Notes under the pieces: generated by a model
Database searches by the model: none
Told to the model about the DNA's origin: nothing
Seen by the model: the letters and a program-made list of their open reading frames with translations, nothing else
Source: Gelidibacter salicanalis
Lineage (GTDB): Bacteria; Bacteroidota; Bacteroidia; Flavobacteriales; Flavobacteriaceae
Direction: 5' to 3'
DNA length: 64,000 bases
NCBI RefSeq assembly: GCF_016469035.1
Contig: NZ_JAEHJZ010000035.1
Span: 43,883-107,882 of the forward strand
Made by a program: the position numbers and the translations under genes
In this document: positions 5,100-19,104 of the stretch, piece after piece
Numbering within the stretch: the first letter of the stretch is position 1
Layout: the number at the start of each line of letters is the position of its first letter

Positions 5100-8000
5100 T
5101 TAAAAGGTCACATTAAAACTCAACATATAAGATGTTGGCAGCGGCAATGATTTATAAGGAAATGTTTCAGGATCATATCCATCCAGGCCTTTGTCTGCAA
5201 ACAGAAATAAATTATTGCCTTCCAATTGTACATATGCTCTAGAAAACTTAAGTGCTCTAAGAATACTTTCCGATAAATTGTACTGTAAAGTCACATTGCT
5301 TAACCTTAAGAAATCACCTTTTACTACACGTATATCACTTTTATTCCAATAGGTTTTGTGGTTGTTTTGACCTGTTTCATTTTTAAGATGTGGAATATTT
5401 GTTGAATTTTCATCACCCGGTTCCCTCCATGCATTGAGAAGTTCTTTATTTAAGTTTTGATCTGGAGAATACATCCATGAAGCTAGTATCTCCTCCTTTC
5501 TAAAATAATTGCCAAAACCGTATGTTAACAGTGCTGAAAGTTTAAAGTTTTTGTATTCAAATAAATTGCTTACCCCCCCCTGATATGGCGCCTCAATTGG
5601 ACCATTATAAACCAGATCATCAACTCCAAATTCTAAATCTCTCTTAGCGGTTGTTGTTTCTCCATTAGCCAAATTGAAATGGGCAACACCCTCTTCGTCA
5701 AGGTGACTATAGCTAACAGAGTATAATGAATTTAAAGGTTTACCAACAATTGCAGCATCTGGTTTATATGGGAATGGCGATAGCATTCTAGATACATTAG
5801 GATCAATATTTACTTTTTTGACTTCATTCTTATTATAAGCAAAGTTTACCGTAGTACTCCAATTGAAATTAGGTTTTGGAGCTCTAATATTTCTAGTTGT
5901 CAACCCGAATTCAATTCCTTTGTTTGACACATCAGCAAAGTTGATTGGTAACGTAGAAAAACCATTTACCTCTGAAATTCTGGTATATGTGATTAAATCT
6001 TCACTAAGTCGGTCATAAATATCAATGGCTCCTAGAACTCTGTTATTAAATAAAACAAAGTCTAAACCTATATTTGTACTGTAAGTTTTTTCCCATCTCA
6101 AGTCTGGATTGGCAGGAGAGGAAATCGTTAATAGATCTAAATCTGACCAGTAAGCCGGGTTTAGGAAAGATGCCACAATTTGTGGTGTGCTTTCCGAGTT
6201 GGTAGAACCTTGTAATCCATAAGACCCGCGTAAAGACAAGTTGTCAAAAACACTTTCTTTCATAAATTCTTCCTCAATAATGTTCCATCTTCCAGAAACT
6301 GACCAAGCAGGCTCCCATCTATATTTAGGACTAGAACCAAAAAGATTTGATCCATCGTACCTTATATTACCATTGATCACATATTTGTCATAAATGGAAT
6401 AGGTCAATACACCAAAATAAGAAGCAGACTTCGTTTTATAATCACGAATTTGCAAGTACGGTGCACCAGCCAATTCTTCTCCTATATTTTCACTTGTGGA
6501 AATGACCCTTCCTCTATCATGGAGATACCCCCACCCCACGGTATTATCTCCTCGATAATTGTTTACACGATATTCTCCACCTCCGTAGAATTGCAAAAAA
6601 TGAACATCAGTCTCAATTGGCGTGTACTCTAGAGCCATACGCGTCATATAATAGTCTTGGAAATTTGAATTTGAAAAAATCACACCTCCTCTGGGTAGAT
6701 TACTATCTGCTGGAGCAGGTTCTCCAAAATTAGACCTTCTTATTCCTGCCACTTGATTGGTGTTTTCAGTATAATAGGTTTCATTTAACTGGCTGCTCTT
6801 AGTATAGTTAACAACGCCAAAGACCTTTAAATTATTCAGAATATCAAAATCTAATGAAATTCTTGAGCTTGTGCTATTAGTATTTGCTTCTTGGTTAGAG
6901 TTAGAATATTCGTTCATTATATTGAACAAATAAAAATCACTATGCCCTCTATACATGTTAGGGCTTCCATCGGTATTATAAAGAGGAAACGTTCTACTTG
7001 TATTTATTGCGTAATCAAAAGGATTTGGTGTCGATCTCGTAAAATTTGATATCCCTGCTGGCACGTAACTGTAAGGATAGGAACTTCTATTAGTTGTGAA
7101 TGTAGAAAGATAAAACTCTAAATTAAATTTATCTGATAATTGGGTGTTCAACTTTACAGAACCATTATACCTCTGGTTTTTAGTAAGAATGTCTGTACCA
7201 TCCTGATTAAGATATGATAATGAAGCATAATAATTAACACTTTTGCTTCCTCCAGACACGTTGAAACTAGTTGTTGTTCCTACGGCGTCCCGAAACAATT
7301 CTTTAAACCAATCCGTGTTATATGTTTGTGCTAACCTTACTTCATCTCCAAATTGTTGCCAATTTTGTAAATCTCTGTTTTTATAGCGGGCATAAGCTCC
7401 TGCGAGACCTACAGAATTAACGTTGGCGTCAGAGTTATAATACTGCAATCCCGAATCAAAATAAAATTGCTCAATGTCAATTCTCTCCTTTGAGTTCATC
7501 AAGTTAAAATCATTGTATCGGGGTCTTTGAGTCACGCTTGTCCCTACATTGATATTAATAACAGGCTTTCCTTCCCGACCACGTTTAGTGGTGAGCACAA
7601 TGACACCTCCTGCAGCACGCACACCGTAAATAGCAGATGCTGAGGCATCTTTTAAAACAGTTATTGATTCTATATCTTGGGGATTAATTCCGGAGATTGA
7701 ATTACCAATACGGTTTACTAAATCAGGTGTATTCAGTTCCGCAGGGGTTAATGGCACGGGATCTTCTAATACGACACCATCAACAACCCATAAAGGCGAA
7801 GTATTTCCTGTTAAAGTAGATGTGCCTCTAATTTTCACTATGGGTACAGCTCCGACTTCGCCAGAACTTTTCACAACGGACAGGCCTGGAATTTGACCTT
7901 GTATTAAATTGTCAATTTGAGGATTCCAAGCAGGAATATCCTTGGTTTTGACTGTGCTAATAGCACCAGTACTCTTTTTCTCTATGATAGTGTTATAGCC

Positions 8001-8636
8001 AGTTAAAATGACCTCAGTTAAAGAGGCTACATCAGGAACCATCTTAACATTAATTGTTAATTCGCTCTTCACTTCCAAGGCCTGAGTTTCAAATCCTATT
8101 GAAGAGAACGTTAAAAAATCACCCTTTTCCACTTTAATAGAGTAATTTCCATCAAAATCAGTGGAGGTACCCTTGTTGGTGTTTTTCACTAAAACGGTAA
8201 CCCCAGGGAGTGGCATATCATTTTCGTCAGTGACTCTTCCTTCAATAGGTTGTTGAACATTGGAGTTTTCTTTATTGTTGACTATTATAATTGTATTTGT
8301 TCCTGAAATTTCGAATTTATAGTCATTATTTGAAAGGCTTTGTCTTAGCAAGTCTGAAACCAAAACCTCCCCCTCAGTTAGATTAATTGTAGGTGCATCT
8401 TTAAACAGGCTTCGAGGATAAATAAACTCATAATCCGTCTGATTCTTTATAATTTTAAAGACTTGATCTATAGTTACGATCTGATCTTTATAGATGGTAA
8501 CTTTTTCTTGGGAGAAGGTGTTTTCTGCAGTAAAACTAAAAACAGTTGTACAGAGTAAGAAAATAAAGGTTCTCATAAGTGTAAGGGATAGTCGTCTTTT
8601 AAAAGACAAACAGGTGGTGACTAATTTAATTTCCAT
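5100..8636 (-). CDS. susC-like: SusC/RagA family TonB-dependent transporter with STN domain
   Basis: A 1178-residue outer-membrane transporter. After a signal peptide (about residues 15-42) it has an STN domain (residues about 48-115) that lets it signal to a FecR anti-sigma factor, a carboxypeptidase-D-like beta-sandwich (about 130-215, GRVTDENDMPLPGV), a plug domain (about 225-355), and a long beta barrel ending in an aromatic-rich FNVTF terminus. The STN domain matches the FecR/ECF-sigma pair directly upstream on the same strand: ligand binding should be relayed through FecR to the sigma factor. Length and architecture are normal for the family. The substrate is unknown. Confidence 0.95.
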   Translation of the reverse strand: MEIKLVTTCLSFKRRLSLTLMRTFIFLLCTTVFSFTAENTFSQEKVTIYKDQIVTIDQVFKIIKNQTDYEFIYPRSLFKDAPTINLTEGEVLVSDLLRQSLSNNDYKFEISGTNTIIIVNNKENSNVQQPIEGRVTDENDMPLPGVTVLVKNTNKGTSTDFDGNYSIKVEKGDFLTFSSIGFETQALEVKSELTINVKMVPDVASLTEVILTGYNTIIEKKSTGAISTVKTKDIPAWNPQIDNLIQGQIPGLSVVKSSGEVGAVPIVKIRGTSTLTGNTSPLWVVDGVVLEDPVPLTPAELNTPDLVNRIGNSISGINPQDIESITVLKDASASAIYGVRAAGGVIVLTTKRGREGKPVININVGTSVTQRPRYNDFNLMNSKERIDIEQFYFDSGLQYYNSDANVNSVGLAGAYARYKNRDLQNWQQFGDEVRLAQTYNTDWFKELFRDAVGTTTSFNVSGGSKSVNYYASLSYLNQDGTDILTKNQRYNGSVKLNTQLSDKFNLEFYLSTFTTNRSSYPYSYVPAGISNFTRSTPNPFDYAINTSRTFPLYNTDGSPNMYRGHSDFYLFNIMNEYSNSNQEANTNSTSSRISLDFDILNNLKVFGVVNYTKSSQLNETYYTENTNQVAGIRRSNFGEPAPADSNLPRGGVIFSNSNFQDYYMTRMALEYTPIETDVHFLQFYGGGEYRVNNYRGDNTVGWGYLHDRGRVISTSENIGEELAGAPYLQIRDYKTKSASYFGVLTYSIYDKYVINGNIRYDGSNLFGSSPKYRWEPAWSVSGRWNIIEEEFMKESVFDNLSLRGSYGLQGSTNSESTPQIVASFLNPAYWSDLDLLTISSPANPDLRWEKTYSTNIGLDFVLFNNRVLGAIDIYDRLSEDLITYTRISEVNGFSTLPINFADVSNKGIEFGLTTRNIRAPKPNFNWSTTVNFAYNKNEVKKVNIDPNVSRMLSPFPYKPDAAIVGKPLNSLYSVSYSHLDEEGVAHFNLANGETTTAKRDLEFGVDDLVYNGPIEAPYQGGVSNLFEYKNFKLSALLTYGFGNYFRKEEILASWMYSPDQNLNKELLNAWREPGDENSTNIPHLKNETGQNNHKTYWNKSDIRVVKGDFLRLSNVTLQYNLSESILRALKFSRAYVQLEGNNLFLFADKGLDGYDPETFPYKSLPLPTSYMLSFNVTF

Positions 8637-8680
8637 AAATTTGCAAGGTGTTAGTTAGACATTAGTTTAATTTTCAAGCT

Positions 8681-8727
8681 AGAGGGACGAAGTGAGACAT
8701 CGGGAAATGATTAGCTTCGTTCTCTCT
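8681..8727 (-). promoter_or_regulatory. Imperfect inverted repeat between fecR and susC
   Basis: In the 94-base gap between the fecR stop and the susC start, GAGAGAACGAAG and CTTCGTCCCTC arms (minus-strand sense) can form a long imperfect hairpin in the susC leader. A run of six T follows it only on the plus strand, so a classical terminator for the minus-strand transcript is not formed. It could attenuate read-through or stabilise the susC message. Role inferred. Confidence 0.4.
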
Positions 8728-8730
8728 TTT

Positions 8731-9897
8731 TTATTTTAAAATCACATTTCTATCGCTTATTTCATAACTTTTAATACTGCCGACACTTTTAATGTTCTTG
8801 AGAATACTCTCGATACTCCTGTCTTTATAAAGAACACCTACAAACTCTACGTTTTCGATGTCTTTATTCTTAAATTCAACATTCATATTATACCATCTAG
8901 ATAAAACAGTCATAATTTCTTTTAAAGATTTATCTTCAAAACTGAAAACTCCATCTCTCCAAGAAACTTCATTGTAAACATTCACATTAGAAATTTGTGC
9001 TGTGTTATCCAAAACATTATAAGCGTATTGTTGATCTGGCTGCAAAGTTTGGCTATTATCAGAATGTAAAACCAAAACTTTACCTTCAACCAATGTTGTA
9101 TAAATGGTTGCTTCATCTTTATAAGCCTTCACATTGAACTGGGTTCCAACAACTTCAACCTTCTGACCTCGAGAAAATACTTGAAAAACGTCACCATTGT
9201 GCAACGAACTAGGCGATACTTCAAAATATGCCTCTCCATATACGAGTTCAACTTTACGAGAAGTTCCTTCAATAAAATTGATAGGATATTTTAATTGGCT
9301 TTCTGAATTGAGCCATACTGTAGTGTTATCAGATAATTTGACTACAAACTGACCACCTCTTGGAATGGTCAAATAGTTATATTGAATGACATTGTTGGTG
9401 ACAACACTTTGAGAATCGACTGCATTATAAACAATTTCGTCACCGTTGCTGCTGATATTTTGACTTTCATATAAGGTGCCTTTTTCTAATAAAACGATGG
9501 AACCGTTCTCTAAAGTCAAAGTGGCCTTATTGGTGCCAATTTGAATATTATTTTCAACTACCTTTAGATCTTTTGTTCCACTTGGGACGTCACGATTTAG
9601 AACGCTATAAGCAATAAAACCTCCTATTAAAATCACAGCCGCGTACTTTAATAGATTTGCATTAAAAACAGATAAAACCTTCTTTCTTTTAAAGCTTCCA
9701 ATACCTAGCTTTTTCTGGATATTATTGTAGATTTTTTCTTCTACAACTCCCCTATCTTCATCTTGATTTTCCCAAGTGTTGATTTCCTGATGGCTTTGGA
9801 AAAAATTTAGAAGTGCCTTAATCTCCTTCATATTGGCTTTTCCAGACAACAATTGCTCTATAAGAATTAGGAACTTTCTTTTATTATTTATGTTCAT
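8731..9897 (-). CDS. fecR-like: FecR-family anti-sigma factor
   Basis: A 388-residue inner-membrane protein. A cytoplasmic N-terminal segment (residues 1-80) should bind the sigma factor, a single membrane helix lies at about residues 82-102 (KYAAVILIGGFIAYSVL), the periplasmic FecR domain at about 170-275 (VVGTQFNVKAY), and a C-terminal DUF4974 domain, found in most Bacteroidota FecR proteins, at about 310-388. It would hold the ECF sigma inactive until SusC binds substrate. The gene lies 75 bases downstream of the sigma gene and upstream of susC on one strand, the classic regulator order. Confidence 0.92.
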   Translation of the reverse strand: MNINNKRKFLILIEQLLSGKANMKEIKALLNFFQSHQEINTWENQDEDRGVVEEKIYNNIQKKLGIGSFKRKKVLSVFNANLLKYAAVILIGGFIAYSVLNRDVPSGTKDLKVVENNIQIGTNKATLTLENGSIVLLEKGTLYESQNISSNGDEIVYNAVDSQSVVTNNVIQYNYLTIPRGGQFVVKLSDNTTVWLNSESQLKYPINFIEGTSRKVELVYGEAYFEVSPSSLHNGDVFQVFSRGQKVEVVGTQFNVKAYKDEATIYTTLVEGKVLVLHSDNSQTLQPDQQYAYNVLDNTAQISNVNVYNEVSWRDGVFSFEDKSLKEIMTVLSRWYNMNVEFKNKDIENVEFVGVLYKDRSIESILKNIKSVGSIKSYEISDRNVILK

Positions 9898-9972
9898 TTT
9901 TTTCTTTCAAAGGGGTCATACATAATAATGACGAAAAAAAACACTTGAACACCTGCTCAATAGCTAAAAAAA

Positions 9973-10569
9973 TTAATTATGGTAATGGTAGAGAATAAAA
10001 ATGATATATGAAGTAGTTGATATAGAACTCAAAGAGCCTCTTAAAATCTTAAGAGCTTTTGTTATATGACCTTCAACGGTACGTGGAGAAATATTTAATT
10101 TGCTGGCGATTTCTTTATGACTGAGATCCTCATTCCTACTTAAATTAAAAACAATTCGGCACTTTTCCGGAAGTTCGCTTATAATGGTCTCAAGGTATTC
10201 ATGAAGTTCCTTGTCCATTAGTTTGGTTTCGGGATTAGATGTCTGTATGCGTTCATTAAAGTTCTCCAACAAATCAACTGTAATAGCAGATTTGTTTTTT
10301 CGGAAATAATCATATGTTTTATATATGGCACTTGTATAGAGATAACTTTTTAAAGACACCTTTATGTCAAGTCTTTCGCGATTTCTCCAGATTTTCACAA
10401 AAACATCCTGCACAATATCTTCGCTGATTTGTTTGTTATTGACAAGATTATATACCGCAAAATACATTAATTCCCAATGTTCCTTATAGACTGAGGCTAA
10501 TGCAGATTCATCATTGTTGTTTAGACGATGAATTAAATCTCTTTCTTTTAGACTAAGTTTAGAAGACAT
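9973..10569 (-). CDS. ECF sigma factor, Bacteroidota FecI-like
   Basis: A 198-residue sigma-70 family protein: region 2 at about residues 10-80 (ISEDIVQDVFVKIWRNRERL) and region 4 with a helix-turn-helix at about 120-175 (CRIVFNLSRNEDLSHKEIA, NISPRTVEGHI). The C-terminal hydrophobic tail (TSYIIFILYHYHN) is common in this Bacteroidota ECF group. It is the first gene of the import locus and should transcribe susC/susD when released by FecR. Confidence 0.93.
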   Translation of the reverse strand: MSSKLSLKERDLIHRLNNNDESALASVYKEHWELMYFAVYNLVNNKQISEDIVQDVFVKIWRNRERLDIKVSLKSYLYTSAIYKTYDYFRKNKSAITVDLLENFNERIQTSNPETKLMDKELHEYLETIISELPEKCRIVFNLSRNEDLSHKEIASKLNISPRTVEGHITKALKILRGSLSSISTTSYIIFILYHYHN

Positions 10570-11210
10570 GAATAGAAGTTTATGTGAACGAAGTTAAAAA
10601 AATTAACGTATTTGTAACATTAAACACAAAAAAACCTATTTATTTAGATAAAGCTTGTGGTTTTCAAGAGTTCAAATTTTTAAAAAAAATTGAAATAAAT
10701 GTCCAGTTTATTTAGTAAAAAACTGCGCGTTTTAAAGAAGGCAAACAACTTTCATTTATCATCTATTATATTTTAGGATAATCATTTTTAAAAGCTGTTT
10801 TAAGGTTATTTGGAAAACCGACCGCACGGTTTAAAGTATTCAAAATGCACAAACTAATAGTTTGTGTATAGTAAATTTTTTAAACATACCTTTTAGAGAA
10901 AAAAAGTAAAGTTTAAATAAATCTAGCCTATTGAGTTTCTATTGCTTTTGATTAAAATAGTCCATCTACCACCGAAGCTGACTTCGTCAAAGTCATTATT
11001 AAATGAATAGGATACTATTCATGACCAGCAGTTGCGGTTCAGAAAACTGGAAATTTTGATGATAGAATCCAACTCAAAAAAATAATGTCGTCCGGCTAAA
11101 ACTATAGTAACCACAGCGCATTATGACAAACATAATTAGCCCAAAATACATTTGTTAATTTACAACTCTTTCGGAAGTTTTAGGTCTTTATATGCAAACA
11201 ACATTTTAAA
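10570..11210. other. AT-rich intergenic stretch with three small hairpins
   Basis: No convincing gene is visible. Three compact inverted repeats stand out: AAACCG/CGGTTT at 10815-10832, CACAAACT/AGTTTGTG at 10848-10866, and ATGAATAG/CTATTCAT at 11003-11022. None has a clear T-run, so I do not call terminators. The right part lies downstream of the XRE gene and may hold the end of its transcript. Confidence 0.5.
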
Positions 11211-11459
11211 TTAATTTTCTAATTCTTCCAAAGAAAAATTAAAACTATATAATTCCATTGGATGAATACCAAGACCTTTTGCAATAGGTAAGATTGTTGT
11301 GATTTTAGGTTCATTCTCATCAGCAAGGATTCTATAAATAGCTTTATTTTCAATGTTCCCAATTGAGGCAATAGTGGCGATATCTCGGTCACTTTCTTCA
11401 ATTAATTTTCTTAAATGTTCACTGAATGCTTTTCGATATCCTTTTCTCCACTCTTTCAT
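11211..11459 (-). CDS. Small XRE-type helix-turn-helix regulator
   Basis: An 82-residue protein that is almost entirely one HTH domain (residues about 10-68; LRKLIEESDRDIATIASIGN followed by an IYRIL recognition-helix region and a closing IAKGLGIHPMELY segment), the usual shape of single-domain XRE repressors in this phylum. I use the ATG at 11459; a GTG five codons upstream is also open. A 14-bp inverted repeat 35 bases upstream is a candidate autoregulatory operator. It stands between the sus locus and the sigma-Cas12f module and could regulate either, or only itself. Confidence 0.72.
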   Translation of the reverse strand: MKEWRKGYRKAFSEHLRKLIEESDRDIATIASIGNIENKAIYRILADENEPKITTILPIAKGLGIHPMELYSFNFSLEELEN

Positions 11460-11493
11460 TAGCACAATATCCACCCAAACGATCGAAAAAAAT

Positions 11494-11507
11494 TGTCAAG
11501 TTTGACA
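11494..11507. promoter_or_regulatory. Candidate operator TGTCAA-GT-TTGACA
   Basis: A perfect 6+2+6 inverted repeat between the XRE gene, which reads left, and the promoter of the structured RNA, which reads right. The symmetry and position suit a dimeric HTH repressor. Binding is inferred. Confidence 0.45.
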
Positions 11508-11544
11508 CTTTTAAATAATTTTTCTTATATTTACTCCATATTAA

Positions 11545-11552
11545 TATATTTG
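11545..11552 (+). promoter_or_regulatory. Bacteroidota -7 element TATATTTG
   Basis: A perfect match to TAnnTTTG, the -7 element of the Bacteroidota primary sigma factor. Transcription would begin near 11559 and run straight into the long-hairpin RNA. The -33 TTG element is not clear. This supports an independent RNA gene. Confidence 0.55.
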
Positions 11553-11576
11553 CGATACTTCTTAAAGTAAAATATT

Positions 11577-11757
11577 AGAAGCATTCGTTTTGAATCTCGC
11601 CTTTGGAAACTGGTAATTTTTAGGAAACGAGAGGATAAGTGAAATGCTCACGACCCGGGGCGTGGGCTCACTTATTGTTTCCAGGTATACCAGTACCTCA
11701 AAGGCATAAGTTGAGTCTTCACGTCCTTTTTGTTTGTATAAAAAAGGTCATGCTTCT
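11577..11757 (+). ncRNA. Long-hairpin structured RNA, 6S-like fold
   Basis: Nested complementary segments build one long bulged hairpin: 11577-11584 with 11750-11757 (AGAAGCAT/ATGCTTCT), 11599-11605 with 11699-11705 (GCCTTTG/CAAAGGC), 11610-11615 with 11688-11693 (CTGGTA/TACCAG), 11623-11628 with 11677-11682 (GGAAAC/GTTTCC), 11635-11642 with 11668-11675 (ATAAGTGA/TCACTTAT), and 11646-11652 with 11661-11667 (one G-U). A closing stem, a large asymmetric loop and a long terminal stem in about 180 nt is the layout of 6S RNA, which binds housekeeping RNA polymerase; a Flavobacteria-specific 6S family exists, but I cannot run its covariance model. The alternative is an RNA belonging to the sigma-Cas12f module just downstream, because it shares a 14-nt element with the RNA after that operon. 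That it is a structured RNA is well supported; its identity is open. Confidence 0.72.
11660..11673 (+). repeat. 14-nt element shared by both RNAs, copy 1
   Basis: GCGTGGGCTCACTT, identical to 13835-13848. Here it is part of the 3' arm of the terminal stem of the long-hairpin RNA. In both places AATGC occurs a short distance upstream (12 or 16 bases between). Confidence 0.8.
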
Positions 11758-11869
11758 CTACTTTTTTCAAAGCACCTTCTCTTTATAAATCATAAGAACT
11801 CGCTTTAGTAATTAAATATGAATCCAATTTAATTCTGGTGGAGGCTACCACCCATTTAAATGAGGTCTT

Positions 11870-12655
11870 ATGGTGCACACTAATTTTGAACAATTAAAAA
11901 ACGGCTGTCATGCAGCCTTTGCGGAAATCCATGCCCAATACAGTAGGCGTATCTTCTGGGTGGGCAAGCGAATGATCAACGATGATTTTGTTGTGGAATC
12001 ATTGGTCCAGGATACTTTTTTAAAGTTGTGGATCCATATGGACCGTATTGAAACGCCTGAGCATATTTTCTTTTTTCTCCGGTTCGTGATGAAAAGGGAA
12101 TGTATCTCCTATTATACACGGCCGAGAAACAGGTTTTTCAGAAAAGTCAATTCGTTAGAGTCCTATGACAATTTCCAGGACTATCTGGCGGGATACGATC
12201 CCATCCATGACACTGAAAATCTCAATGTCCAAAAATATGAACAGGCTAATTTCGATCGCATTAAAAAAATACTGCCCCTACTCAATGCGGAAAAACGACA
12301 CTTGATCGATCTCTGTTTAAAATACGGCTTTCAATATAAACCCATTTCGAAACTCATGGGAACCAGCATTACCGAAACCAGCAACAAGGTAAAAATGGCC
12401 ATTAGGGATATCCGGAGCATCATTAATCAGGGGAACCTGTTGGAATCCACAAAAAAACCAAGAAATATAGTGAAAATCCAAGGATCAATAACCGAGGCTC
12501 AAAAGCATATATTGGAACTCCGCTGTGAGGAAAAGCATTCCTTTGAGACCATTGCAACCGCGCTCAACCTTTCCCAAAAGGTAGTGCACCGAGAATTCCT
12601 GACGGCGTATAAATTACTACAGGAGAAACACCAACAACAATCACAATTTGCTTGA
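11870..12655 (+). CDS. Cas12f-associated sigma-70-family factor with two HTH modules
   Basis: A 261-residue protein. Residues about 5-90 form sigma region 2 (VVESLVQDTFLKLW helix, then the RFVMKRECISYY region). Residues about 130-190 form a region-4-like HTH (PLLNAEKRHLIDLCL, then YKPISKLMGTSITETSNKV). Unusually, residues about 206-252 form a second one (SITEAQKHILELRCEEKHSF, ETIATALNLSQ, VVHREFLTAYKLL). Ordinary ECF factors of this phylum have one region 4 and about 170-200 residues. It is followed after one base by the TnpB/Cas12f-like gene, so the two are translationally coupled. The block looks richer in G and C than its neighbours, suggesting transfer. I infer that it is recruited by the RNA-bound partner rather than by its own promoter sequence. 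No anti-sigma gene is adjacent. Confidence 0.85.
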   Translation: MVHTNFEQLKNGCHAAFAEIHAQYSRRIFWVGKRMINDDFVVESLVQDTFLKLWIHMDRIETPEHIFFFLRFVMKRECISYYTRPRNRFFRKVNSLESYDNFQDYLAGYDPIHDTENLNVQKYEQANFDRIKKILPLLNAEKRHLIDLCLKYGFQYKPISKLMGTSITETSNKVKMAIRDIRSIINQGNLLESTKKPRNIVKIQGSITEAQKHILELRCEEKHSFETIATALNLSQKVVHREFLTAYKLLQEKHQQQSQFA

Positions 12656-12656
12656 T

Positions 12657-13754
12657 ATGGAAAAGACCACACTAAAACTAACGCGAAAAATCCAGCTCTT
12701 GGTAGACCTCCCCACCAAGGAAGAACGAAAGGCGGCACTGGATATGCTCTACCAATGGCAGAACAGATGCTTTAGGGCAGCTAACCTTATCGTTACCCAT
12801 CTGTATGTACAGGAAATGATCAAGGAGTTCTTTTATCTATCGGAAGGCATAAAGTACAAACTGACTGATGAAAAAAAAGACGAATCCGGCATCTTGCAAC
12901 GTTCGCGAATCAACACCACCTATCGTGTGGTATCAGACCGCTTTAAGGGTGAAGTCCCCACAAACATATTATCAAATCTGAGTAATACCTTGCTTGCCTC
13001 CTTTAATAAAAATAGACCGGAATATTGGAGTGGCGAACGTTCCCTACAAAACTTCAGACGGGACATGGCATTTCCATTTGGCAAGGAGTGTATTAGTAAG
13101 TTGACGTTTGATGCCGAAAGAAATGCGTTCTGCTTTAGGTTGTTCCAGATTCCTTTTCGCACCTATTTAGGGAAGGATCATAGTGACAAACGGAAACTGC
13201 TCGAACGTGTCATAAAAGGAGAGACCAAACTTTGTATGTCACACATCAAACTGAAGGATGGCAAAATTTTCTGGCTCCCAATCTTCGAGATTGAGAAGGA
13301 AAACCACGTCCTAAAAGCGGAGGTAATTGCAGAGGCCTCATTGTCCATAGAATATCCCATTGTCGTAAAGGCCAATAACACCAAGCTTACCATTGGCACC
13401 AAAGAAGAGTTTCTGTACAGGAGGCTAGCCATACAGGCAGCCCAGAATAGAGCACAGGTTGGAGCCGCCTTTTCCAGATCGGGCAAAGGAATCAAAAGAA
13501 AATTAAAGGCCGTGGATAGGCTCAGTGACGCAGAAAGTAAATATGTCCGCCATCGTATACATGTTTATAGCAGACGGCTGATCGACTTTTGCATAAAGAA
13601 TCAGGCAGGAACACTCCTAATATTAAATCTTGAGGACCAGGTTGAATTAGCTAAAGAGGAAGCGTTTGTATTAAGGAATTGGAGCTATTATGACTTGATG
13701 GCCAAAATAAAATACAAGGCTGAAAAAGCTGGTATTGAAATTATTGTCGATTGA
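12657..13754 (+). CDS. Nuclease-dead TnpB/Cas12f-like RNA-guided protein
   Basis: A 365-residue protein (ATG at 12657; a TTG three codons upstream is also open) resembling the compact TnpB/Cas12f family: an N-terminal helical and beta region (LYQWQNRCFRAANLIVTHLYVQ), a middle segment like the WED domain, and a RuvC-like C-terminal half. Where active members have GIDxG at RuvC-I, this protein reads VVKANNTKL (near residue 240). Where they have an I-V-x-E-D-L glutamate at RuvC-II it reads LILNLED (near 324). It stops right after KAEKAGIEIIVD, so the CxxC zinc finger and the RuvC-III aspartate are absent. I infer RNA-guided binding without cleavage. Coupling to a sigma gene matches the recently reported dCas12f-sigma RNA-guided transcription systems of Bacteroidota, which I recall but cannot look up here. 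The fold is inferred from short motifs. Confidence 0.82.
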   Translation: MEKTTLKLTRKIQLLVDLPTKEERKAALDMLYQWQNRCFRAANLIVTHLYVQEMIKEFFYLSEGIKYKLTDEKKDESGILQRSRINTTYRVVSDRFKGEVPTNILSNLSNTLLASFNKNRPEYWSGERSLQNFRRDMAFPFGKECISKLTFDAERNAFCFRLFQIPFRTYLGKDHSDKRKLLERVIKGETKLCMSHIKLKDGKIFWLPIFEIEKENHVLKAEVIAEASLSIEYPIVVKANNTKLTIGTKEEFLYRRLAIQAAQNRAQVGAAFSRSGKGIKRKLKAVDRLSDAESKYVRHRIHVYSRRLIDFCIKNQAGTLLILNLEDQVELAKEEAFVLRNWSYYDLMAKIKYKAEKAGIEIIVD

Positions 13755-13767
13755 CAAATTATATAAC

Positions 13768-13850
13768 GAGGGTGCTTGTAAACCCGTAGGGTGAGGTCAT
13801 TGGCACTCACTGAATGCGTAAAGCATATACAACGCGTGGGCTCACTTTTT
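13768..13850 (+). ncRNA. Candidate guide RNA scaffold of the sigma-Cas12f module
   Basis: Starting 14 bases after the Cas12f-like stop, the sequence can form several nested stems: ACCC (13783-13786) with GGGT (13790-13793), GTGAG (13792-13796) with CTCAC (13807-13811 or 13842-13846), ATGC/GCAT at 13815-13827, and GCGT/ACGC at 13817-13836. Position immediately 3' of the gene is where TnpB/Cas12f-type guide RNAs are often encoded. The alternative GTGAG-CTCAC pairing resembles a repeat/anti-repeat joined in one RNA. If so the guide would be the bases after about 13848. The 3' boundary, guide and promoter are not determined from sequence alone. Confidence 0.5.
13835..13848 (+). repeat. 14-nt element shared by both RNAs, copy 2
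   Basis: GCGTGGGCTCACTT, identical to 11660-11673, here at the 3' end of the candidate guide scaffold and followed by TTTATGATAAGCC. Together the two copies bracket the sigma-Cas12f operon. Confidence 0.8.
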
Positions 13851-14799
13851 ATGATAAGCCTGAACTAATGATTTAACAAAAAATTACGGATTTATTATTC
13901 GTTATCAGAGGGACGATACGAAATAATCGTATTTTCCCAAATGGAATCTCATGGGCGTGAGCAGGAAACCCGTTTTGCTCTCGACTTGAACCATCTTGTG
14001 CCCACATTTTGCATCATCTGAACCCTCCAGAATATAACGTCAAGTGGGCATACTAATTATGGTATGTTTTCTTTGTAATAATTTACTTATTATATCCTGA
14101 GCGTTTTCCTTTTATGGTACTGCTGAATTTCGCTTTTTCTTTAGCCCTCCAATATAATCCTAACAACGAGAACACAACAAACTATCATCTACATCTCCAA
14201 TTTACTTCCCATAGTGCCTATCGCTGTTACCTTACGGATACTACATCCAAAATTTCGATCGAGTAAGGACTTATAAAAGGGAGGCACGACCGGTTATGCA
14301 GTCTGTCTCGAGCTAAATTTTAAACTTTGTGGAGAAATGGAATGGTGATCTCTTGTTAAGCGGACGCTATTCCAAAGTTGACCAATCTCAATTGCGAGAA
14401 ATCATTATTAAAATACTGACCGAATCTTTATACGGAAAATCCTAAACTTTGGAATTGGGTCCAAGACTTTTTTAATGAAGCGCTTTGCCCGTAATGGAGC
14501 TTTTCGCGAAATGGAGTGGCAATGGGCTGAAAGGACCAAACGCTAAATCGAAAAATTTATGGAAGGTATGGAGCAGACTTGAATTCAAAGTTGATTTGAC
14601 AATGTATTTCGATCAGTTGCCAAAAAATCTTGGGAAATACCAGAAATACATTTTTCTCTTCGGAAGGCAGAATCCTGCTTGGTTCTTTAACGCATACTAA
14701 AAATCCTTAGAAGATATTATTTCCTATAATTATCTTAATTTATGGATATGCTCTCAATTCTTTTTATATGAATTCCAATTCAATAACATGGTCAGTAAT
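13851..14799. other. Gene-poor, degraded stretch between module and CBASS
   Basis: No intact gene is seen. It contains a hairpin GATACGA/TCGTATT near 13914-13932, and a 7-bp inverted repeat TGCCCAC (14000-14006) with GTGGGCA (14045-14051). From about 14330 to 14700 several short open stretches in different frames are interrupted by stops (for example a frame reading EKWNGDLLLSGRYSKVDQ before a TAA), which looks like a decayed gene, perhaps of a mobile element; I cannot name it. The 71-codon ORF at 14485 is probably part of this decay. Confidence 0.5.
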
Positions 14800-16302
14800 T
14801 TAAACTAGCCAAAATGGCTTACCATATAACCTCATTATTGGCCATTCAAGAATATTTTCATAAGGATATTCCTTAATGGCATTTCTTATCATTTGTTGAT
14901 TTGCCTTGCCCAATAATAATTTACAGCATAATTCAAATACCTTAGATTCTTTATTTCTATTTAAAACTTCTACAATTTGGATCTCTGCTTTATCGGACAT
15001 AGGAATATTCCTATGTCTAACTATTTGGTAAAAATTGACCAAAGCTATATCCTTATGGATTTGGTCAGGAGCGGTGTGATAATAAGATTGTGCAAAATCC
15101 TTCACCCTATCCCAATTTATTTTGCCTTCAATACCCAAATGTATTAAATCCAGTAAATGTTCTTCAGAATTAGTAAAAAAATTAGATGCTTGTTCATTTC
15201 TTTGTTGAATACTTCTAATTAAAATATTTAAATTATTTTCTCCAATGCCAAAAGTTTTTATTTTCAAATTCAAGTCATCTGATAATCCACTTTTATTGAA
15301 TCCTTTCAAGTCTCTGTCTAATTGATAAACCCATTCAAAAAAAGCAATAGAAAGATTCTCATCACTGTTCCATTTATCAGCAAAATTGTCGGGATCCTCT
15401 CCGAATTTCGGAATGTCTGCAGGATTTCGAATGAGCCATTTCTCATTTTCATAATCCAATATATTATCAACCTCTAAATATCCATATCTAACTAAAAATT
15501 TATGCCTCTTCTTTACGTAATTAATAAAATCTTGTATTGTATTAAGTATGTTATTGCTTTTATTTACTTTGGTCGTTATTGTCGTAATTATTATAGAAAT
15601 TGGCCGATTGTCCTTTTTTGAAAAACCAACATCTCGATGACGTTTCATTATTTGAATAGCACGTTGTAATGCAGTCCTGATTAACTGTTTAGGCACATTT
15701 TCAACTGTTGAAAATAATTCCCTATTAGATTCGAATATTGCCCTTTTTTCAGTTTGAATAAATTCTGTAGAATAAACATTCTTTGATTTAAACCAGTAAT
15801 AGTAGCCTTTAGGATTACATGTCGACCAAGTATATCTATTATTTTCTTGGTTGGTAATATCAATTTTGTATGCTACATCACTATTCGATGGCAATGCTGG
15901 CAAAATATCAATATGAAATCCAGGACGCCCCTCTTCAGAAGCGTATTTAATAGTCCAGCATCTTCTACCTTCATCATCAAGCATTCTTTTATAATCGCTA
16001 TTTTCTTTTAATCTATTGCCAATATCATTTTTTAAAACTTTTGCATATTTTGACGGATTAATTTTAGTAAGTTCACATACTTGATCAATATCAAATTCTC
16101 CATCTTTATCATCCTTATATGGACGAACTACGGTGCCTAATCTAAATGAACCTTGTAAGTATACGTCTGGATGGCACCCAGACTCGTAAGTTCCGCCTTT
16201 TAACCAATTTTTTGTACTATTAAACCGTTCCTGAGCTTTCTTAAAATCTGAGGGTGATATATCCAAATACTGTGAGATTTGATGTAAAATTTCTTCTTCC
16301 AT
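14800..16302 (-). CDS. CD-NTase (cGAS/DncV-like nucleotidyltransferase), CBASS
   Basis: A 500-residue nucleotidyltransferase with the CD-NTase signature: G51-S52-F53, then D71-x-D73 (EFDID) and the third metal aspartate at about D132 (FHIDIL). The NFADKW segment near residue 325 is shared with the second nucleotidyltransferase of the operon. On sensing phage such enzymes make a cyclic oligonucleotide that switches on a killing effector. This copy has about 90 extra C-terminal residues of unknown function and ends in FWLV with no obvious Gly-rich tail. It is the last gene of the operon, ten bases after the patatin effector. The nucleotide product cannot be read from sequence. Confidence 0.88.
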   Translation of the reverse strand: MEEEILHQISQYLDISPSDFKKAQERFNSTKNWLKGGTYESGCHPDVYLQGSFRLGTVVRPYKDDKDGEFDIDQVCELTKINPSKYAKVLKNDIGNRLKENSDYKRMLDDEGRRCWTIKYASEEGRPGFHIDILPALPSNSDVAYKIDITNQENNRYTWSTCNPKGYYYWFKSKNVYSTEFIQTEKRAIFESNRELFSTVENVPKQLIRTALQRAIQIMKRHRDVGFSKKDNRPISIIITTITTKVNKSNNILNTIQDFINYVKKRHKFLVRYGYLEVDNILDYENEKWLIRNPADIPKFGEDPDNFADKWNSDENLSIAFFEWVYQLDRDLKGFNKSGLSDDLNLKIKTFGIGENNLNILIRSIQQRNEQASNFFTNSEEHLLDLIHLGIEGKINWDRVKDFAQSYYHTAPDQIHKDIALVNFYQIVRHRNIPMSDKAEIQIVEVLNRNKESKVFELCCKLLLGKANQQMIRNAIKEYPYENILEWPIMRLYGKPFWLV

Positions 16303-16312
16303 AAAGTTAATT

Positions 16313-17365
16313 TTAATAAAAATGGCTCTTTAATATGTGACTACCCTTTTCATGAAACTCTACCATAGCTAATTCTGCAAAATTCTTTATCCTTTGAGGT
16401 CTTTTCTCATCCATTTCAATATAATCATCCTCACATAGAATTACATTAATGCGATCGTATACAAAATTAGGGTTATCAATTTCTGTCTTGTCTATACCTT
16501 GGTGTAAGAGACTAATATAATTTTCTACCAACTGTGACTGGCTTTGCATAAATAAATCTATCAATCTTTTTCTGCCATTTTTTACCATCCAATAATAGAG
16601 ACCCCATTTTTTTCTCTCTGAGTCCCCTTCAGTGAATTTTTTATAACCAGTGCCTATGGATAAAACCTCCAAATCCTTTAAATCCTTTCCAAATGCTTTC
16701 AATCCTTCAATCACGCCAATTAAAGTAGGATTATTCGCCATTATACCACCATCTACTTTATTATTAAATGGTCTATGCATGCCATCTAAATCTAAATATT
16801 CAGAAGAGTAAGGATCAAAATATGTTGGAGCCGCTGATGTTGCCATTGCAGCCTTGTAGGCCGGGATATGTAAATCTCTTTTAAAACTAGGATGGTAAGG
16901 AGATTTAAGAACGCTCGGATTCCCCTTAATCATATCATATATTGGAATGGCAACGTGTGTCAAACAGTCATTTAGTCTTGGGTCATCATCACCTTGAAAA
17001 TATTCTTTAAATTTATTTCTGACCAAATCTTCTAATACTTCTCTTTTATGCGTAGCCCAAAAGATTTGCCTAAAAAAAGAATAGATTTTTCCTAGTTTAG
17101 AATACTTTGTCTTTCTGAATATTTTATCAGCGTTCTCTATATAAAGCTCATATATTTCTTGTGCAGGTATCCCAAGAGATAAAGCTAATGCAATAATTCC
17201 TCCTGTTGATGTGCCAGTTATTAATTGAAAATGGTCTTTAATTTTAGTTTTGCCATCATTCCTTTTAGCCAACTCTTGCTCTATCAAGGACAAATAATAT
17301 GCAGGAAAGACTCCTTTGATTCCTCCTCCATCAATGGAGAGAATTTTAAATTTTTCGTTATTCAT
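16313..17365 (-). CDS. capV-like: Patatin-like phospholipase, CBASS effector (CapV-like)
   Basis: A 350-residue patatin: the oxyanion loop DGGGIKG at residues 12-18, nucleophile elbow GTSTGG at 51-56 (Ser53), and catalytic Asp in the DGG motif near residue 205. These are complete, so it should be an active phospholipase. In CBASS, patatins of this type bind the cyclic nucleotide and degrade the inner membrane of the infected cell. The start overlaps the E2-like gene by eight bases, so translation is coupled. No membrane helix is seen. Confidence 0.9.
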   Translation of the reverse strand: MNNEKFKILSIDGGGIKGVFPAYYLSLIEQELAKRNDGKTKIKDHFQLITGTSTGGIIALALSLGIPAQEIYELYIENADKIFRKTKYSKLGKIYSFFRQIFWATHKREVLEDLVRNKFKEYFQGDDDPRLNDCLTHVAIPIYDMIKGNPSVLKSPYHPSFKRDLHIPAYKAAMATSAAPTYFDPYSSEYLDLDGMHRPFNNKVDGGIMANNPTLIGVIEGLKAFGKDLKDLEVLSIGTGYKKFTEGDSERKKWGLYYWMVKNGRKRLIDLFMQSQSQLVENYISLLHQGIDKTEIDNPNFVYDRINVILCEDDYIEMDEKRPQRIKNFAELAMVEFHEKGSHILKSHFY

Positions 17366-17831
17366 CCTTAAAAATTTTATCTAATGTTTCATTTGGATAC
17401 TCATTATGTCCACCACCATACCATTTCCCTTCAGCTAACCAAAGCTCGTAATAATATAACCATTCACTCGCCCAAGGAATGATTGTATTTACAATTCTCA
17501 TATTTGGCTTCCATTCCCGTTTTGAAGGCGAATACAAGCATAACTTTTGCTTGTCCGAATCATAAACATGTGGTAGTTTTTTTCTGTTCGGTGCTAATTT
17601 TAGAATTTTGTCAATTACATAGACTTCAGTGTATAAATTCCTTTTGTAAATAATCTTTATTTTATATTTTTCACTTAAGGGTGTTGGCTGCAATTCTATA
17701 GATATTTCAAAACTATTCCAGCTTTTCTTTAGAACCTTTGTATTTGGGAAAGCCTGCTTTAATATTTGCAGTTGTAGATAAGCAGGCATTCCAAAATGTT
17801 TTTTCTTTCTTCTGAAGAATTTACTTGCCAT
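17358..17831 (-). CDS. Stand-alone E2-like protein of type II-short CBASS
   Basis: A 157-residue protein (ATG at 17831; TTG four codons upstream also possible). The order H-x-Y...LCLY (Cys near residue 98), a W..N..I...TIIPWASEWLYYYE.W segment, and WYGGGH matches the bacterial E2-like proteins found next to CD-NTases, with Cys in LCLY as the predicted thioester residue. In short type II CBASS this E2, without E1 or JAB, primes the cyclase by modifying its C terminus. The gene overlaps the end of the CD-NTase at 17821 by 11 bases, so that enzyme is the likely substrate. Family from motifs only. Confidence 0.75.
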   Translation of the reverse strand: MASKFFRRKKKHFGMPAYLQLQILKQAFPNTKVLKKSWNSFEISIELQPTPLSEKYKIKIIYKRNLYTEVYVIDKILKLAPNRKKLPHVYDSDKQKLCLYSPSKREWKPNMRIVNTIIPWASEWLYYYELWLAEGKWYGGGHNEYPNETLDKIFKDE

Positions 17832-19104
17832 CTTTCCCCTCAAAATTGTGTTCTAGCACTTTCGAACCTACAGCACCTAAAAAACCTGTTTCTGTTGCCA
17901 TTTTTCTACGACCCACATTTCTCTCCATAGTACTTACTTTACCATAATTAGCAAAAGCTTTATTGGTTACTGTTTTCCCATACATATCAGACATAGACTC
18001 ACTTATATTTTGCAAACCTACACCCTGACTATTTCGAAGAATCTTTAGGTCTTCCTCAAGTTTGTCTAGCCATAAATAAAAATAGTCTTCTTTTTGTTTC
18101 ACAAAACTCCACTTATCAGCGAAATTTTCTCCTGCATTATCCTCACTTGGCATATTAACTGGATTAGCAACCCATTTTTCCAATTTACCGGTTTCTGGAT
18201 TTTCTCTTTCCTCAATTAAACCTCTCATTTTCATGACAATATTCGTGTACGCATCAATGATGTTTTCACTTTTGTCATATGCTCTACTCGCTAAGGTTGT
18301 TATGATTATTGAAATAGGCTTATTCTCACTATCGAATTTCTCTGAAGAAAACATAATATCTCTATGTCTTTTCAAAAGTTGAACTACCCTTTGCAACGGT
18401 AATTTTTCAGACTCAAAAACCCTAATTGGATCCACGGACTCCTTTAAACTAAAAATTCGTTCACTGCTCAATAAAGCCTTTTCAAAAAACCATTTTGCAT
18501 ACCCGAAAGGATTGCTTTTTAGCCAATTTTCTACATCTCTATCTGTGTTATAACCATTTTTTTCCCTGTCAGTGATTCTCATAGCCAAATTGTCTGTATC
18601 CAAACCGCTTCCTGTTCCGAAACTCTTTTCTAAGAGTATGGTTAGTCCTTCGTCTGCAAAAGAGGGTAAAATGTCCATATGATAACCAGCCGCATCAGCA
18701 TATTTCAAAGTCCAACATCTTCTACCACCTTCCTCATAATATTCCTTATCGTCGTATTCCATTAACATATAGTCATATGTGCCGTGTTCTTTAAGTCTAT
18801 TACCAATAGACTGTTTTAAATCCCTTTGACTCCACGAATCTGGCTTTCTGTTTAATCTACATACTAAGTCTACATCAATGTCACCATCTTCACAGATTGG
18901 TTTTATCAATGTTCCCAACATAAAAGACCCCTGAGGTATAATTTTAGGACTAAATTCTTTGAGTGGTGAGGTTTCATCTGCTAACCAATTACCTACCGTT
19001 TCGTAGCTTTTTACTACCTCTTCATATTGTGTTCTAGAAATATCAAGCTCTTTACCTAATCCTTTTAAAATCTTGCTAATTTCGGTTTTATATACAATTT
19101 CCAT
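17821..19104 (-). CDS. Second CD-NTase of the CBASS operon
   Basis: A 427-residue nucleotidyltransferase with G59-S60-F61 and the acidic set D75-D77-D79 (GDIDVD), third aspartate at about D144 (YHMDIL). It shares the NP...NFADKW core with the 500-residue enzyme but lacks its long C-terminal extension and ends in a polar tail (FEGKDGK) that could be the target of the adjacent E2-like protein. It overlaps the E2-like gene and sits three bases after the DUF2188 gene. Two complete cyclases in one operon is unusual. Confidence 0.88.
   Translation of the reverse strand: MEIVYKTEISKILKGLGKELDISRTQYEEVVKSYETVGNWLADETSPLKEFSPKIIPQGSFMLGTLIKPICEDGDIDVDLVCRLNRKPDSWSQRDLKQSIGNRLKEHGTYDYMLMEYDDKEYYEEGGRRCWTLKYADAAGYHMDILPSFADEGLTILLEKSFGTGSGLDTDNLAMRITDREKNGYNTDRDVENWLKSNPFGYAKWFFEKALLSSERIFSLKESVDPIRVFESEKLPLQRVVQLLKRHRDIMFSSEKFDSENKPISIIITTLASRAYDKSENIIDAYTNIVMKMRGLIEERENPETGKLEKWVANPVNMPSEDNAGENFADKWSFVKQKEDYFYLWLDKLEEDLKILRNSQGVGLQNISESMSDMYGKTVTNKAFANYGKVSTMERNVGRRKMATETGFLGAVGSKVLEHNFEGKDGK

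What the first reader, a model, noticed from the sequence alone, without database searches (positions are those of the whole stretch)
11870..13754. Sigma factor coupled to a nuclease-dead Cas12f-like protein: RNA-guided transcription module
Seen: a sigma-70 family gene whose stop is followed after one base by a TnpB/Cas12f-like gene that lacks the RuvC-I aspartate (VVKANNTKL), the RuvC-II glutamate (LILNLED) and the entire zinc-finger/RuvC-III end, with structured RNA before and after. Known, recalled and not checked: nuclease-dead Cas12f homologues linked to ECF sigma factors in Bacteroidota have recently been reported to recruit RNA polymerase by guide RNA. Inference: this locus is such a system, here as a free-standing two-gene operon whose partner sigma has an extra HTH and no anti-sigma gene.
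Basis: partly seen in the sequence, partly recalled or inferred. Interest (0 to 1): 0.95.

Follow-up and report, generated by a model that had tools for sequence, protein, structure and literature searches.

The report
RNA-guided transcription starter targeting itself
A bacterium probably of the family Flavobacteriaceae carries a sigma factor and a cutting-dead CRISPR-like protein, close relatives of a recently solved pair, plus a guide RNA that matches a switch-like RNA leader in front of its own genes, so it may start transcription past a built-in stop signal.

Summary
The 365-aa protein is a full-length orthologue of the solved nuclease-dead Cas12f of PDB 9n9c/9n9m, and its sigma gene of the RpoE in 9n9q; relatives keep the two genes adjacent. 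So it is a new member of the known dCas12f-sigma RNA-guided transcription system.

New here: (1) a guide RNA (scaffold 13767-13833, guide 13834-13850) behind dcas12f. (2) The guide matches a G-flanked site, 11660-11676, upstream of its own sigma gene, and more weakly (3 mismatches) one before a susC-susD-peptidase operon. (3) Both sites sit inside the same ~155-nt leader: promoter-like box, two mutually exclusive folds supported by compensatory changes, terminator-like end. The target is the terminator's 5' arm. (4) The leader has no Rfam match where tested and occurs in 67 of 397 family genomes, 49 of them without intact dCas12f.

Most likely mechanism: RNA-guided polymerase starts downstream of the R-loop, giving mRNA without the terminator's 5' arm, bypassing the leader's stop and activating its own operon and perhaps the uptake operon. 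Binding, start site and termination are untested. The solved F. taeanensis guide does not match its own leader; its candidate site lies behind another copy.

The parts
11545..11552 (+). TATATTTG, vegetative-type Bacteroidota -7 box (TAnnTTTG, consensus recalled) upstream of the leader
   Evidence: TAnnTTWG lies within 110 nt upstream of 73 of 76 distinct leaders versus mean 14 (max 18 in 20 rounds) after dinucleotide shuffling; peak 33-29 nt before the leader (coordinate)
11578..11733 (+). Structured leader element, bistable (folds A and B)
   Evidence: CM R1 hit 151 bits, E 3e-31 (the window was in the training set); conserved in relatives; covariation
11578..11599 (+). Leader strand 1 (pairs with strand 2 in fold B)
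   Evidence: RNAalifold on 28 sequences, counts
11628..11652 (+). Leader strand 2 (pairs with strand 1 in fold B, with strand 3 in fold A)
11659..11659 (+). G directly before the target (candidate 5'-G TAM)
   Evidence: G in 28 of 29 guide-leader comparisons with at most 4 mismatches; the G-TAM rule itself is recalled, and this G is part of the conserved leader
11660..11676 (+). Self-target of the guide = leader strand 3 = 5' arm of the terminator-like hairpin
   Evidence: 1 mismatch in 16 (position 15) to the guide at 13834-13849
11706..11726 (+). Leader strand 4 = 3' arm of the terminator-like hairpin
   Evidence: s3:s4 helix
11727..11731 (+). T-run directly after strand 4 (intrinsic-terminator-like)
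   Evidence: sequence; TTTT at this place in 62 of 77 leaders
11870..12655 (+). Sigma factor (RpoE of the dCas12f system), 261 aa
   Evidence: PDB 9n9q_C E 2e-102 over 1-260
12657..13754 (+). Nuclease-dead Cas12f, 365 aa
13767..13833 (+). Guide-RNA scaffold, ending GCATATACAAC
   Evidence: scaffold behind dcas12f in 21 of 21 intact loci by regular expression; CM R2 finds it in 79 of 80 named loci
13834..13850 (+). Guide sequence GCGTGGGCTCACTTTTT
   Evidence: follows the conserved CATATACAAC; true 3' end unknown

Best explanation
The locus is an RNA-guided transcription-initiation module: sigma (RpoE), nuclease-dead Cas12f and a single-guide RNA encoded on the same strand. The guide brings dCas12f-sigma-RNA polymerase to the DNA of a structured leader in front of its own sigma-dcas12f operon (11660-11676) and probably of a susC-susD-S9 peptidase operon elsewhere in the genome. 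The leader looks like an attenuator: read from a vegetative promoter it can fold into a terminator (strand 3 with strand 4, then T-run) or into a competing long hairpin (strand 2 with strand 3). Because the R-loop occupies strand 3 and transcription starts downstream of it, the RNA-guided transcript lacks strand 3 and cannot form the terminator. The module would thus bypass the leader's stop signal, activating itself (positive feedback) and the uptake operon. Shown by computation: orthology, guide RNA, target, leader, its two folds and its distribution. Inferred: binding, activation, start-site position, attenuation and its bypass.
For: Orthology of both proteins to the solved pair. Both genes adjacent in 21 of 21 intact loci. 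Guide scaffold in 21 of 21. Scaffold CM hits in 19 of 19 dCas12f genomes but in only 1 of 49 leader-positive genomes without intact dCas12f, and that one carries a dCas12f fragment next to it. Of 37 genome-wide matches to the common guide sequence with at most 1 mismatch in 19 genomes, 24 are leaders, 12 are the gRNA genes and 1 is neither (my count). Leader within 700 nt upstream of the sigma gene in 16 of 21 loci, a 17th about 1 kb upstream; strong leader hits upstream in 37 of 80 named loci. Of 75 named loci with a guide and enough upstream sequence, 20 have an upstream match with at most 3 mismatches (shuffled upstreams 0.9%); 19 of the 20 are in loci with a leader and preceded by G. 57 of 117 guides are within 2 of 14 nt of a known leader strand 3, shuffled guides 0.1%. 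Fold B: 20 of 37 pairs with changes on both sides, shuffled mean 6.6, 0 of 500. Fold A: own partner strand among the best 10% for 60 of 66 leaders (P1) and 50 of 66 (P3). In the F. taeanensis group four guide-like sites lie about 185-215 nt behind a leader.
Against: No expression, binding or start-site data. The guide fits the window's own leader with 1 mismatch but the SusC leader with 3 (positions 1, 11, 15); with up to 3 mismatches the own genome has 11 hits to the 17-nt pattern against 4 for the reversed pattern, so the SusC site stands out only by its leader. In the 21-locus set only 10 of 27 guides match a leader of their genome with at most 3 mismatches (two more guides, second spacers of L043 and L048, match their own leader with 2). 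The guide of the solved F. taeanensis system has 6 mismatches to its best upstream match. 5 of 21 loci lack a leader within 700 nt. 15 of 77 leaders show no TTTT after strand 4, three of them because strand 4 was not recognised. In the strand-exchange test the fold-B helices and s2:s3 show only weak preference for the own partner (best 10%: s1:s2 15, s3:s4 14, s2:s3 12 of 66); they are conserved rather than strongly covarying. Strand 3 looks the same in genomes without dCas12f, so its conservation is not evidence for guide matching. That transcription starts downstream of the R-loop is recalled, not checked.
Confidence: 0.58

Rival explanations
1. Plain RNA-guided activation: dCas12f-sigma starts transcription at these sites as in the solved system, but the leader is only an old neighbour; its folds and terminator have no functional tie to the guide.
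For: The leader exists without intact dCas12f in 49 of 378 family genomes and in 65 of 296 order genomes examined, so it has its own role; 17 of 27 guides do not match a leader of their genome within 3 mismatches; in the F. taeanensis group the candidate site lies behind the leader, not in it.
Against: 57 of 117 guides in 79 loci carry strand 3, and candidate targets sit in or behind a leader in both guide types.
Confidence: 0.24
2. Roadblock repressor: the R-loop inside the leader stops RNA polymerase coming from the vegetative promoter (TldR-like), so the self-site gives negative feedback.
For: The site lies downstream of a vegetative-type box and inside the leader; nuclease-dead TnpB relatives (TldR) are RNA-guided repressors (PMC13418256, abstract and passages seen).
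Against: The partner is a sigma factor in 21 of 21 intact loci, and a PDB entry holds both proteins; a roadblock would need no sigma.
Confidence: 0.12
3. The guide RNA acts on the leader RNA: as a copy of strand 3 it pairs with strand 2 or 4 in trans and shifts the fold (antitermination or sponge).
For: The guide equals strand 3, which pairs with strands 2 and 4.
Against: The solved relative binds DNA (9n9m 'dCas12f-gRNA-DNA complex'); sites outside the leader in the F. taeanensis group could not act this way; no trans-pairing energy was computed.
Confidence: 0.05
4. Decayed TnpB/Cas12f remnant without function.
For: Missing catalytic residues and C-terminus.
Against: 20 intact relatives share the same end at 63-81% identity, with conserved sigma partner and scaffold.
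Confidence: 0.01

Closest known systems
dCas12f-sigma RNA-guided transcription system of Flagellimonas (Allomuricauda) taeanensis, PDB 9n9c, 9n9m, 9n9o, 9n9q
   Same: Same two genes in the same order, dCas12f 74% identical over 364 aa, sigma full-length homologue, same guide scaffold family behind dcas12f. L226 (A. taeanensis JCM 17757) encodes the solved protein without a difference over the 364 residues compared. That the PDB entries are from this species and what the system does are recalled.
   Different: The window's guide matches the leader upstream of its own operon; the F. taeanensis guide TTGTGGGATATACGCT does not (best upstream match 6 mismatches), and its candidate site (3 mismatches to that guide) lies 187 nt behind another leader copy, before a frame that looks SusC-like by eye.
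TldR, nuclease-dead TnpB repressors (PMC13418256; abstract and passages seen)
   Same: Exapted nuclease-dead RNA-guided protein regulating transcription.
   Different: TldR represses; here a sigma partner points to activation, and the protein is nearer to Cas12f.
Transcription attenuators with four strands (trp type, recalled)
   Same: Strands 1:2 and 3:4 (terminator-like) compete with 2:3.
   Different: No conserved leader peptide seen (by eye, not tested systematically); occurs before SusC and sigma genes; signal unknown; no Rfam match over the leader.

Membership tests
dCas12f-sigma RNA-guided transcription system | Nuclease-dead Cas12f: RuvC acidic residues lost | tested here: met
   RuvC-I Asp and RuvC-II Glu positions of 9nzo align with S and L; no acidic residue in these columns in 21 relatives, read by eye
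dCas12f-sigma RNA-guided transcription system | Sequence and fold of the solved dCas12f | tested here: met
dCas12f-sigma RNA-guided transcription system | Adjacent sigma gene of the same kind as in 9n9q | tested here: met
   E 2e-102 over 1-260; one base apart
dCas12f-sigma RNA-guided transcription system | Guide RNA encoded behind dcas12f | tested here: met
   Scaffold CM E 9e-16 in the own genome (window in the training set), regular expression in 21 of 21 loci; transcription not tested
dCas12f-sigma RNA-guided transcription system | Genomic target with 5'-G TAM (rule recalled) | tested here: met
   G before 11660-11676 and before the C242 site
dCas12f-sigma RNA-guided transcription system | Guide-dependent recruitment of RNA polymerase and new start sites | not testable with these tools
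   Needs ChIP-seq, reporter and 5'-end mapping
Known Rfam leader or riboswitch family | Match to a covariance model over the leader | tested here: not met
   No match at E up to 1 in window 9000-16000; 18 leader loci gave 3 matches below gathering scores, all outside the leaders

The most novel reading that the evidence does not exclude
Flavobacteriales possess an undescribed family of bistable attenuator leaders, mostly before SusC-type uptake genes, and the dCas12f-sigma systems have specialised as RNA-guided bypass starters for it: their guides carry the terminator's 5' arm (or a site behind the leader), so the RNA-guided transcript starts past the stop, and the same leader on their own operon makes a self-reinforcing switch.
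Probability: 0.38. Interest if true: 0.86.

Novelty: new variant of a known kind. Interest (0 to 1): 0.72.

Why it matters
It gives a natural, testable circuit for RNA-guided transcription: what the guide matches, why it may match there, and how the module could control itself. It also points to a widespread leader family before SusC genes that has no Rfam match where tested and that exists without dCas12f, so it opens how Flavobacteriales control nutrient-uptake operons. If the bypass is right, an RNA-guided start site placed inside an attenuator would be a way of switching genes that I do not know from the literature.

Tried and rejected
Considered the upstream structured RNA as a second guide RNA: rejected, as it has no CATATACAAC scaffold and the guide-like sequence is one arm of a larger conserved element. 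Considered a leader peptide from the ATG at 11645: rejected by eye, because loop lengths differ between relatives by numbers that break the frame; not tested systematically. Considered that the leader belongs to dCas12f alone: rejected, as 49 of 378 family genomes without a dCas12f match at E 1e-20 carry it, and of these 49 only one (a fragment) has a match with a profile at E 0.001. Considered Flavo-1, an RNA motif known in Flavobacteriaceae (PMC9723704: passages and section 19 seen): no Rfam hit over the leader. A first pair count for fold A on alignment A4 was poor for P1 and P3 (63% and 67% paired against 47% and 51% with exchanged strands), because A4 is fitted to fold B; I replaced it by an alignment-free strand-exchange test, for which 66 of 77 leaders could be parsed. 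In that test s0:s1, s1:s4 and s4:s5 show little or no preference for the own partner (5, 5 and 16 of 66 in the best 10%); I claim nothing for them.

Literature: the papers on the dCas12f-sigma system were not found in the library; the G-TAM and the start downstream of the R-loop are recalled. For the leader, the listings showed no description; that is no proof of novelty.

Circularity and overlap: the first leaders were found through guide matches, so model R1 was trained on leaders with guide-like strand 3; R1 scores 154 positions, but the figures lean on this set. The 80 named loci overlap with the 21 unnamed ones (several contigs have the same length), so the two sets are not independent.

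Full report

HOST. Relatives of the same family f1 have contigs of exactly the length of named Flavobacteriaceae contigs (for example G102:C41 and a Sinomicrobium contig, 273156 bases; G377:C53 and a Cellulophaga baltica contig, 735892 bases), so the host is most likely Flavobacteriaceae, order Flavobacteriales (inference).

RELATIVES. In the host's genus 1 of 10 genomes has the protein, namely the host. In 397 genomes of the family 19 have it at E 1e-20, with 24 matches; three of these are fragments or broken copies (L026, L027, L031) and were left out, leaving 21 intact loci including the window. All 21 keep the sigma gene directly upstream, have dCas12f of nearly the same length with the same early end, and no acidic residue at the RuvC-I and RuvC-II columns, read by eye. 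A scan of named genomes gave 249 relatives, of which the best 80 were kept; these 80 overlap with the 21.

THE GUIDE RNA. Behind dcas12f lies a conserved RNA, GAGGGTGCTTGTACACCCGTAAGGTGAGG...CACTCACTAAATGC...GCATATACAAC, followed by a guide (window scaffold 13767-13833, guide 13834-13850). A regular expression finds it in 21 of 21 intact loci, 27 copies, some in tandem. A covariance model (R2) finds it in 19 of 19 dCas12f genomes and in 1 of 49 genomes that have the leader described below but no intact dCas12f; in that one (G029) it lies next to a dCas12f fragment. In the 80 named loci it is present in 79, 117 copies; the miss, L255, ends 14 nt after the matched coding stretch.

THE TARGET. 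The window's guide GCGTGGGCTCACTTTT matches 11660-11675 with one mismatch (position 15), starting 210 nt before the sigma start codon, and a second place in the own genome, G000:C242, with three mismatches (positions 1, 11, 15). The second place lies upstream of a SusC gene (TIGR04056), a SusD gene and a peptidase S9 gene. By sequence alone that second match is not remarkable: with up to 3 mismatches the own genome has 11 hits to the 17-nt pattern against 4 for the reversed pattern; the eight hits with 3 mismatches to the pattern were not followed. What sets the C242 site apart is that it lies in a copy of the same leader. Searching the 19 dCas12f genomes for the common guide sequence with up to 2 mismatches, 37 hits have at most one mismatch; by my count are leader elements, 12 are the gRNA genes themselves and 1 (G329:C24) is neither. 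The base before the target is G in 28 of 29 guide-leader comparisons with at most 4 mismatches; this agrees with the recalled 5'-G TAM, but the G is also part of the conserved element, and one genome is counted with two identical guides.

THE LEADER. The target is not in an ordinary promoter. It lies in a ~155-nt element that is conserved over its whole length. It occurs within 700 nt upstream of the sigma gene in 16 of 21 loci and about 1 kb upstream in a 17th, L050. A covariance model (R1, 154 positions) finds it in 18 of the 19 dCas12f genomes, 39 copies (the miss, G385, has its dcas12f at a contig end), in 67 of 397 family genomes (in 5 of the 67 the best E is above 1e-9), and in 65 of 296 genomes sampled from the order, with up to 8 copies in one genome of another family (its listing was cut short). 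Of the 67, 18 have dCas12f at E 1e-20 and 49 do not; a profile search of these 49 found one dCas12f fragment and nothing else. dCas12f and leader still go together strongly (18 of 19 against 49 of 378, Fisher p 2e-14), though related genomes are not independent. Alignment A4 holds 77 leaders: 17 upstream of sigma-dcas12f, 1 duplicate, 59 others; of the 59, 43 are followed by an open frame of at least 900 aa starting within 1600 nt, and 16 are not. Seven such frames that I chose for NCBIfam (six from other genomes and that of the own C242 operon) are all SusC/RagA. Some leaders stand before ordinary ECF sigma genes; the one checked (L160) is followed by a FecR gene. Rfam has no match over the leader.

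TWO FOLDS. Fold A is one long hairpin: the window folds this way at -52.4 kcal/mol, z -3.4. Fold B has a 5' hairpin (strands 1:2) and a 3' hairpin (strands 3:4) ending at a T-run, which is the shape of an intrinsic terminator with a long loop; RNAalifold chooses it on 28 sequences, and the own genome's SusC leader folds this way, z -4.5. On 75 distinct sequences fold B has 20 of 37 pairs with changes on both sides (shuffled mean 6.6, 0 of 500 as high; sliding the partner by 1-3 columns drops pairing from 96% to 37-51%); the alignment was fitted to B, which favours it. Fold A's variable helices were tested without an alignment: 5' and 3' strands of the same leader pair at -10.8 kcal/mol on average against -3.2 with strands of other leaders (P1), and -10.6 against -5.2 (P3); the own partner is among the best 10% in 60 and 50 of 66 (11 of 77 leaders could not be parsed). 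In the same test the more conserved helices show only a weak preference: s1:s2 15, s3:s4 14 and s2:s3 12 of 66. So fold A has strong and fold B moderate support; they exclude each other, as in a four-strand attenuator. A TTTT follows strand 4 in 62 of 77 leaders (in three of the other 15 the script did not recognise strand 4). A TAnnTTWG box, the vegetative -7 box of Bacteroidota (recalled), lies upstream of 73 of 76 distinct leaders against a mean of 14 after shuffling; in the window it is 11545-11552.

PUTTING IT TOGETHER. The guide equals strand 3, the 5' arm of the terminator-like hairpin. From what is recalled of the solved system, polymerase starts downstream of the R-loop. Wherever exactly that is, the transcript lacks strands 1 to 3 and cannot form the 3:4 terminator. 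This gives a simple reading: vegetative transcription enters the leader and is held by the attenuator; RNA-guided transcription starts past it. In the window this would act on the module itself (positive feedback) and probably on a SusCD-peptidase operon. The strand-3 sequence is no local oddity of this guide: 57 of 117 guides in 79 named loci are within 2 of 14 nt of a known strand 3, against 0.1% of shuffled guides, and of 75 named loci with a guide and enough upstream sequence 20 have an upstream match with at most 3 mismatches, 19 of them preceded by G in a locus with a leader, where shuffling predicts under 1%.

RESULTS AGAINST. Only 10 of 27 guides in the 21-locus set match a leader of their own genome with at most 3 mismatches (the second spacers of L043 and L048, not among the 27, match their own leader with 2); others carry different sequences such as GCCTTCCC. 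The guides of F. taeanensis and three relatives (TTGTGGGATAYACGCT) do not match the leader before their own sigma gene (6-7 mismatches). Searching those four genomes with up to 3 mismatches gave many chance-level hits (for the F. taeanensis genome 54 against 41 for the control pattern; its rows were cut from the listing). Of the 12 loci fetched, 4 have a leader: three sites with one mismatch in two relatives and one in the F. taeanensis genome itself (2 mismatches to the pattern, 3 to its own guide). All four lie about 185-215 nt behind the leader and are preceded by G; in F. taeanensis the next large frame looks SusC-like by eye. This fits a start behind the leader's stop, but it means that a target inside strand 3 is not the only arrangement. 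No function has been measured.

VERDICT. Known kind (RNA-guided transcription by dCas12f and sigma), new member by sequence, and to my knowledge a new variant by circuit: self-targeting through a bistable leader whose terminator arm is the target. Whether the original papers mention self-targets or this leader could not be checked, as they were not found in the library.

Noticed in passing
window 14800-19104 (-): CBASS-type defence genes: two CD-NTase-like cyclases, a patatin-like phospholipase effector and an E2-like protein; two cyclase genes in one cluster is unusual to my knowledge.
   Followed up: partly
window 5100-10569 (-): TonB/SusC-like receptor, FecR anti-sigma and ECF sigma cluster directly upstream of and pointing away from the module; R1 found no leader there.
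   Followed up: partly
L049, L050, L268, L271, L273-L276: A second class of guides with CCTTCCC/GCCTTCCC-like sequences; upstream of L049's sigma gene lies a related GCCTTCCC sequence within a palindrome-like stretch, perhaps another kind of leader target.
   Followed up: no
L047, L257, L262, L263, L269: Leeuwenhoekiella loci carry three to six guide RNAs with different guides, suggesting a regulon of several targets (L047 and L262 appear to be the same genome).
   Followed up: no
L043 (9450-9600 of the oriented locus): One guide RNA is followed by a second CATATACAAC and a second guide, like a one-repeat CRISPR-like array.
   Followed up: no
G170:C12:220887-220956, G336:C3 and C13: Guide-RNA-like copies away from the intact dcas12f genes found in those genomes.
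   Followed up: no
L033 (IMG/VR contig, 12377 bases): A viral-collection contig encodes a 36%-identical dCas12f relative; tblastn found no sigma gene of this family on it at E 1e-10.
   Followed up: no
L175 (G336:C5): A leader stands before a short 155-aa frame that begins like the dCas12f-type sigma, perhaps a truncated copy (by eye).
   Followed up: no
window 13880-14790: About 0.9 kb with no ORF above 71 aa between the guide RNA and the CBASS genes, with a short inverted repeat 14362-14379 / 14445-14462.
   Followed up: no
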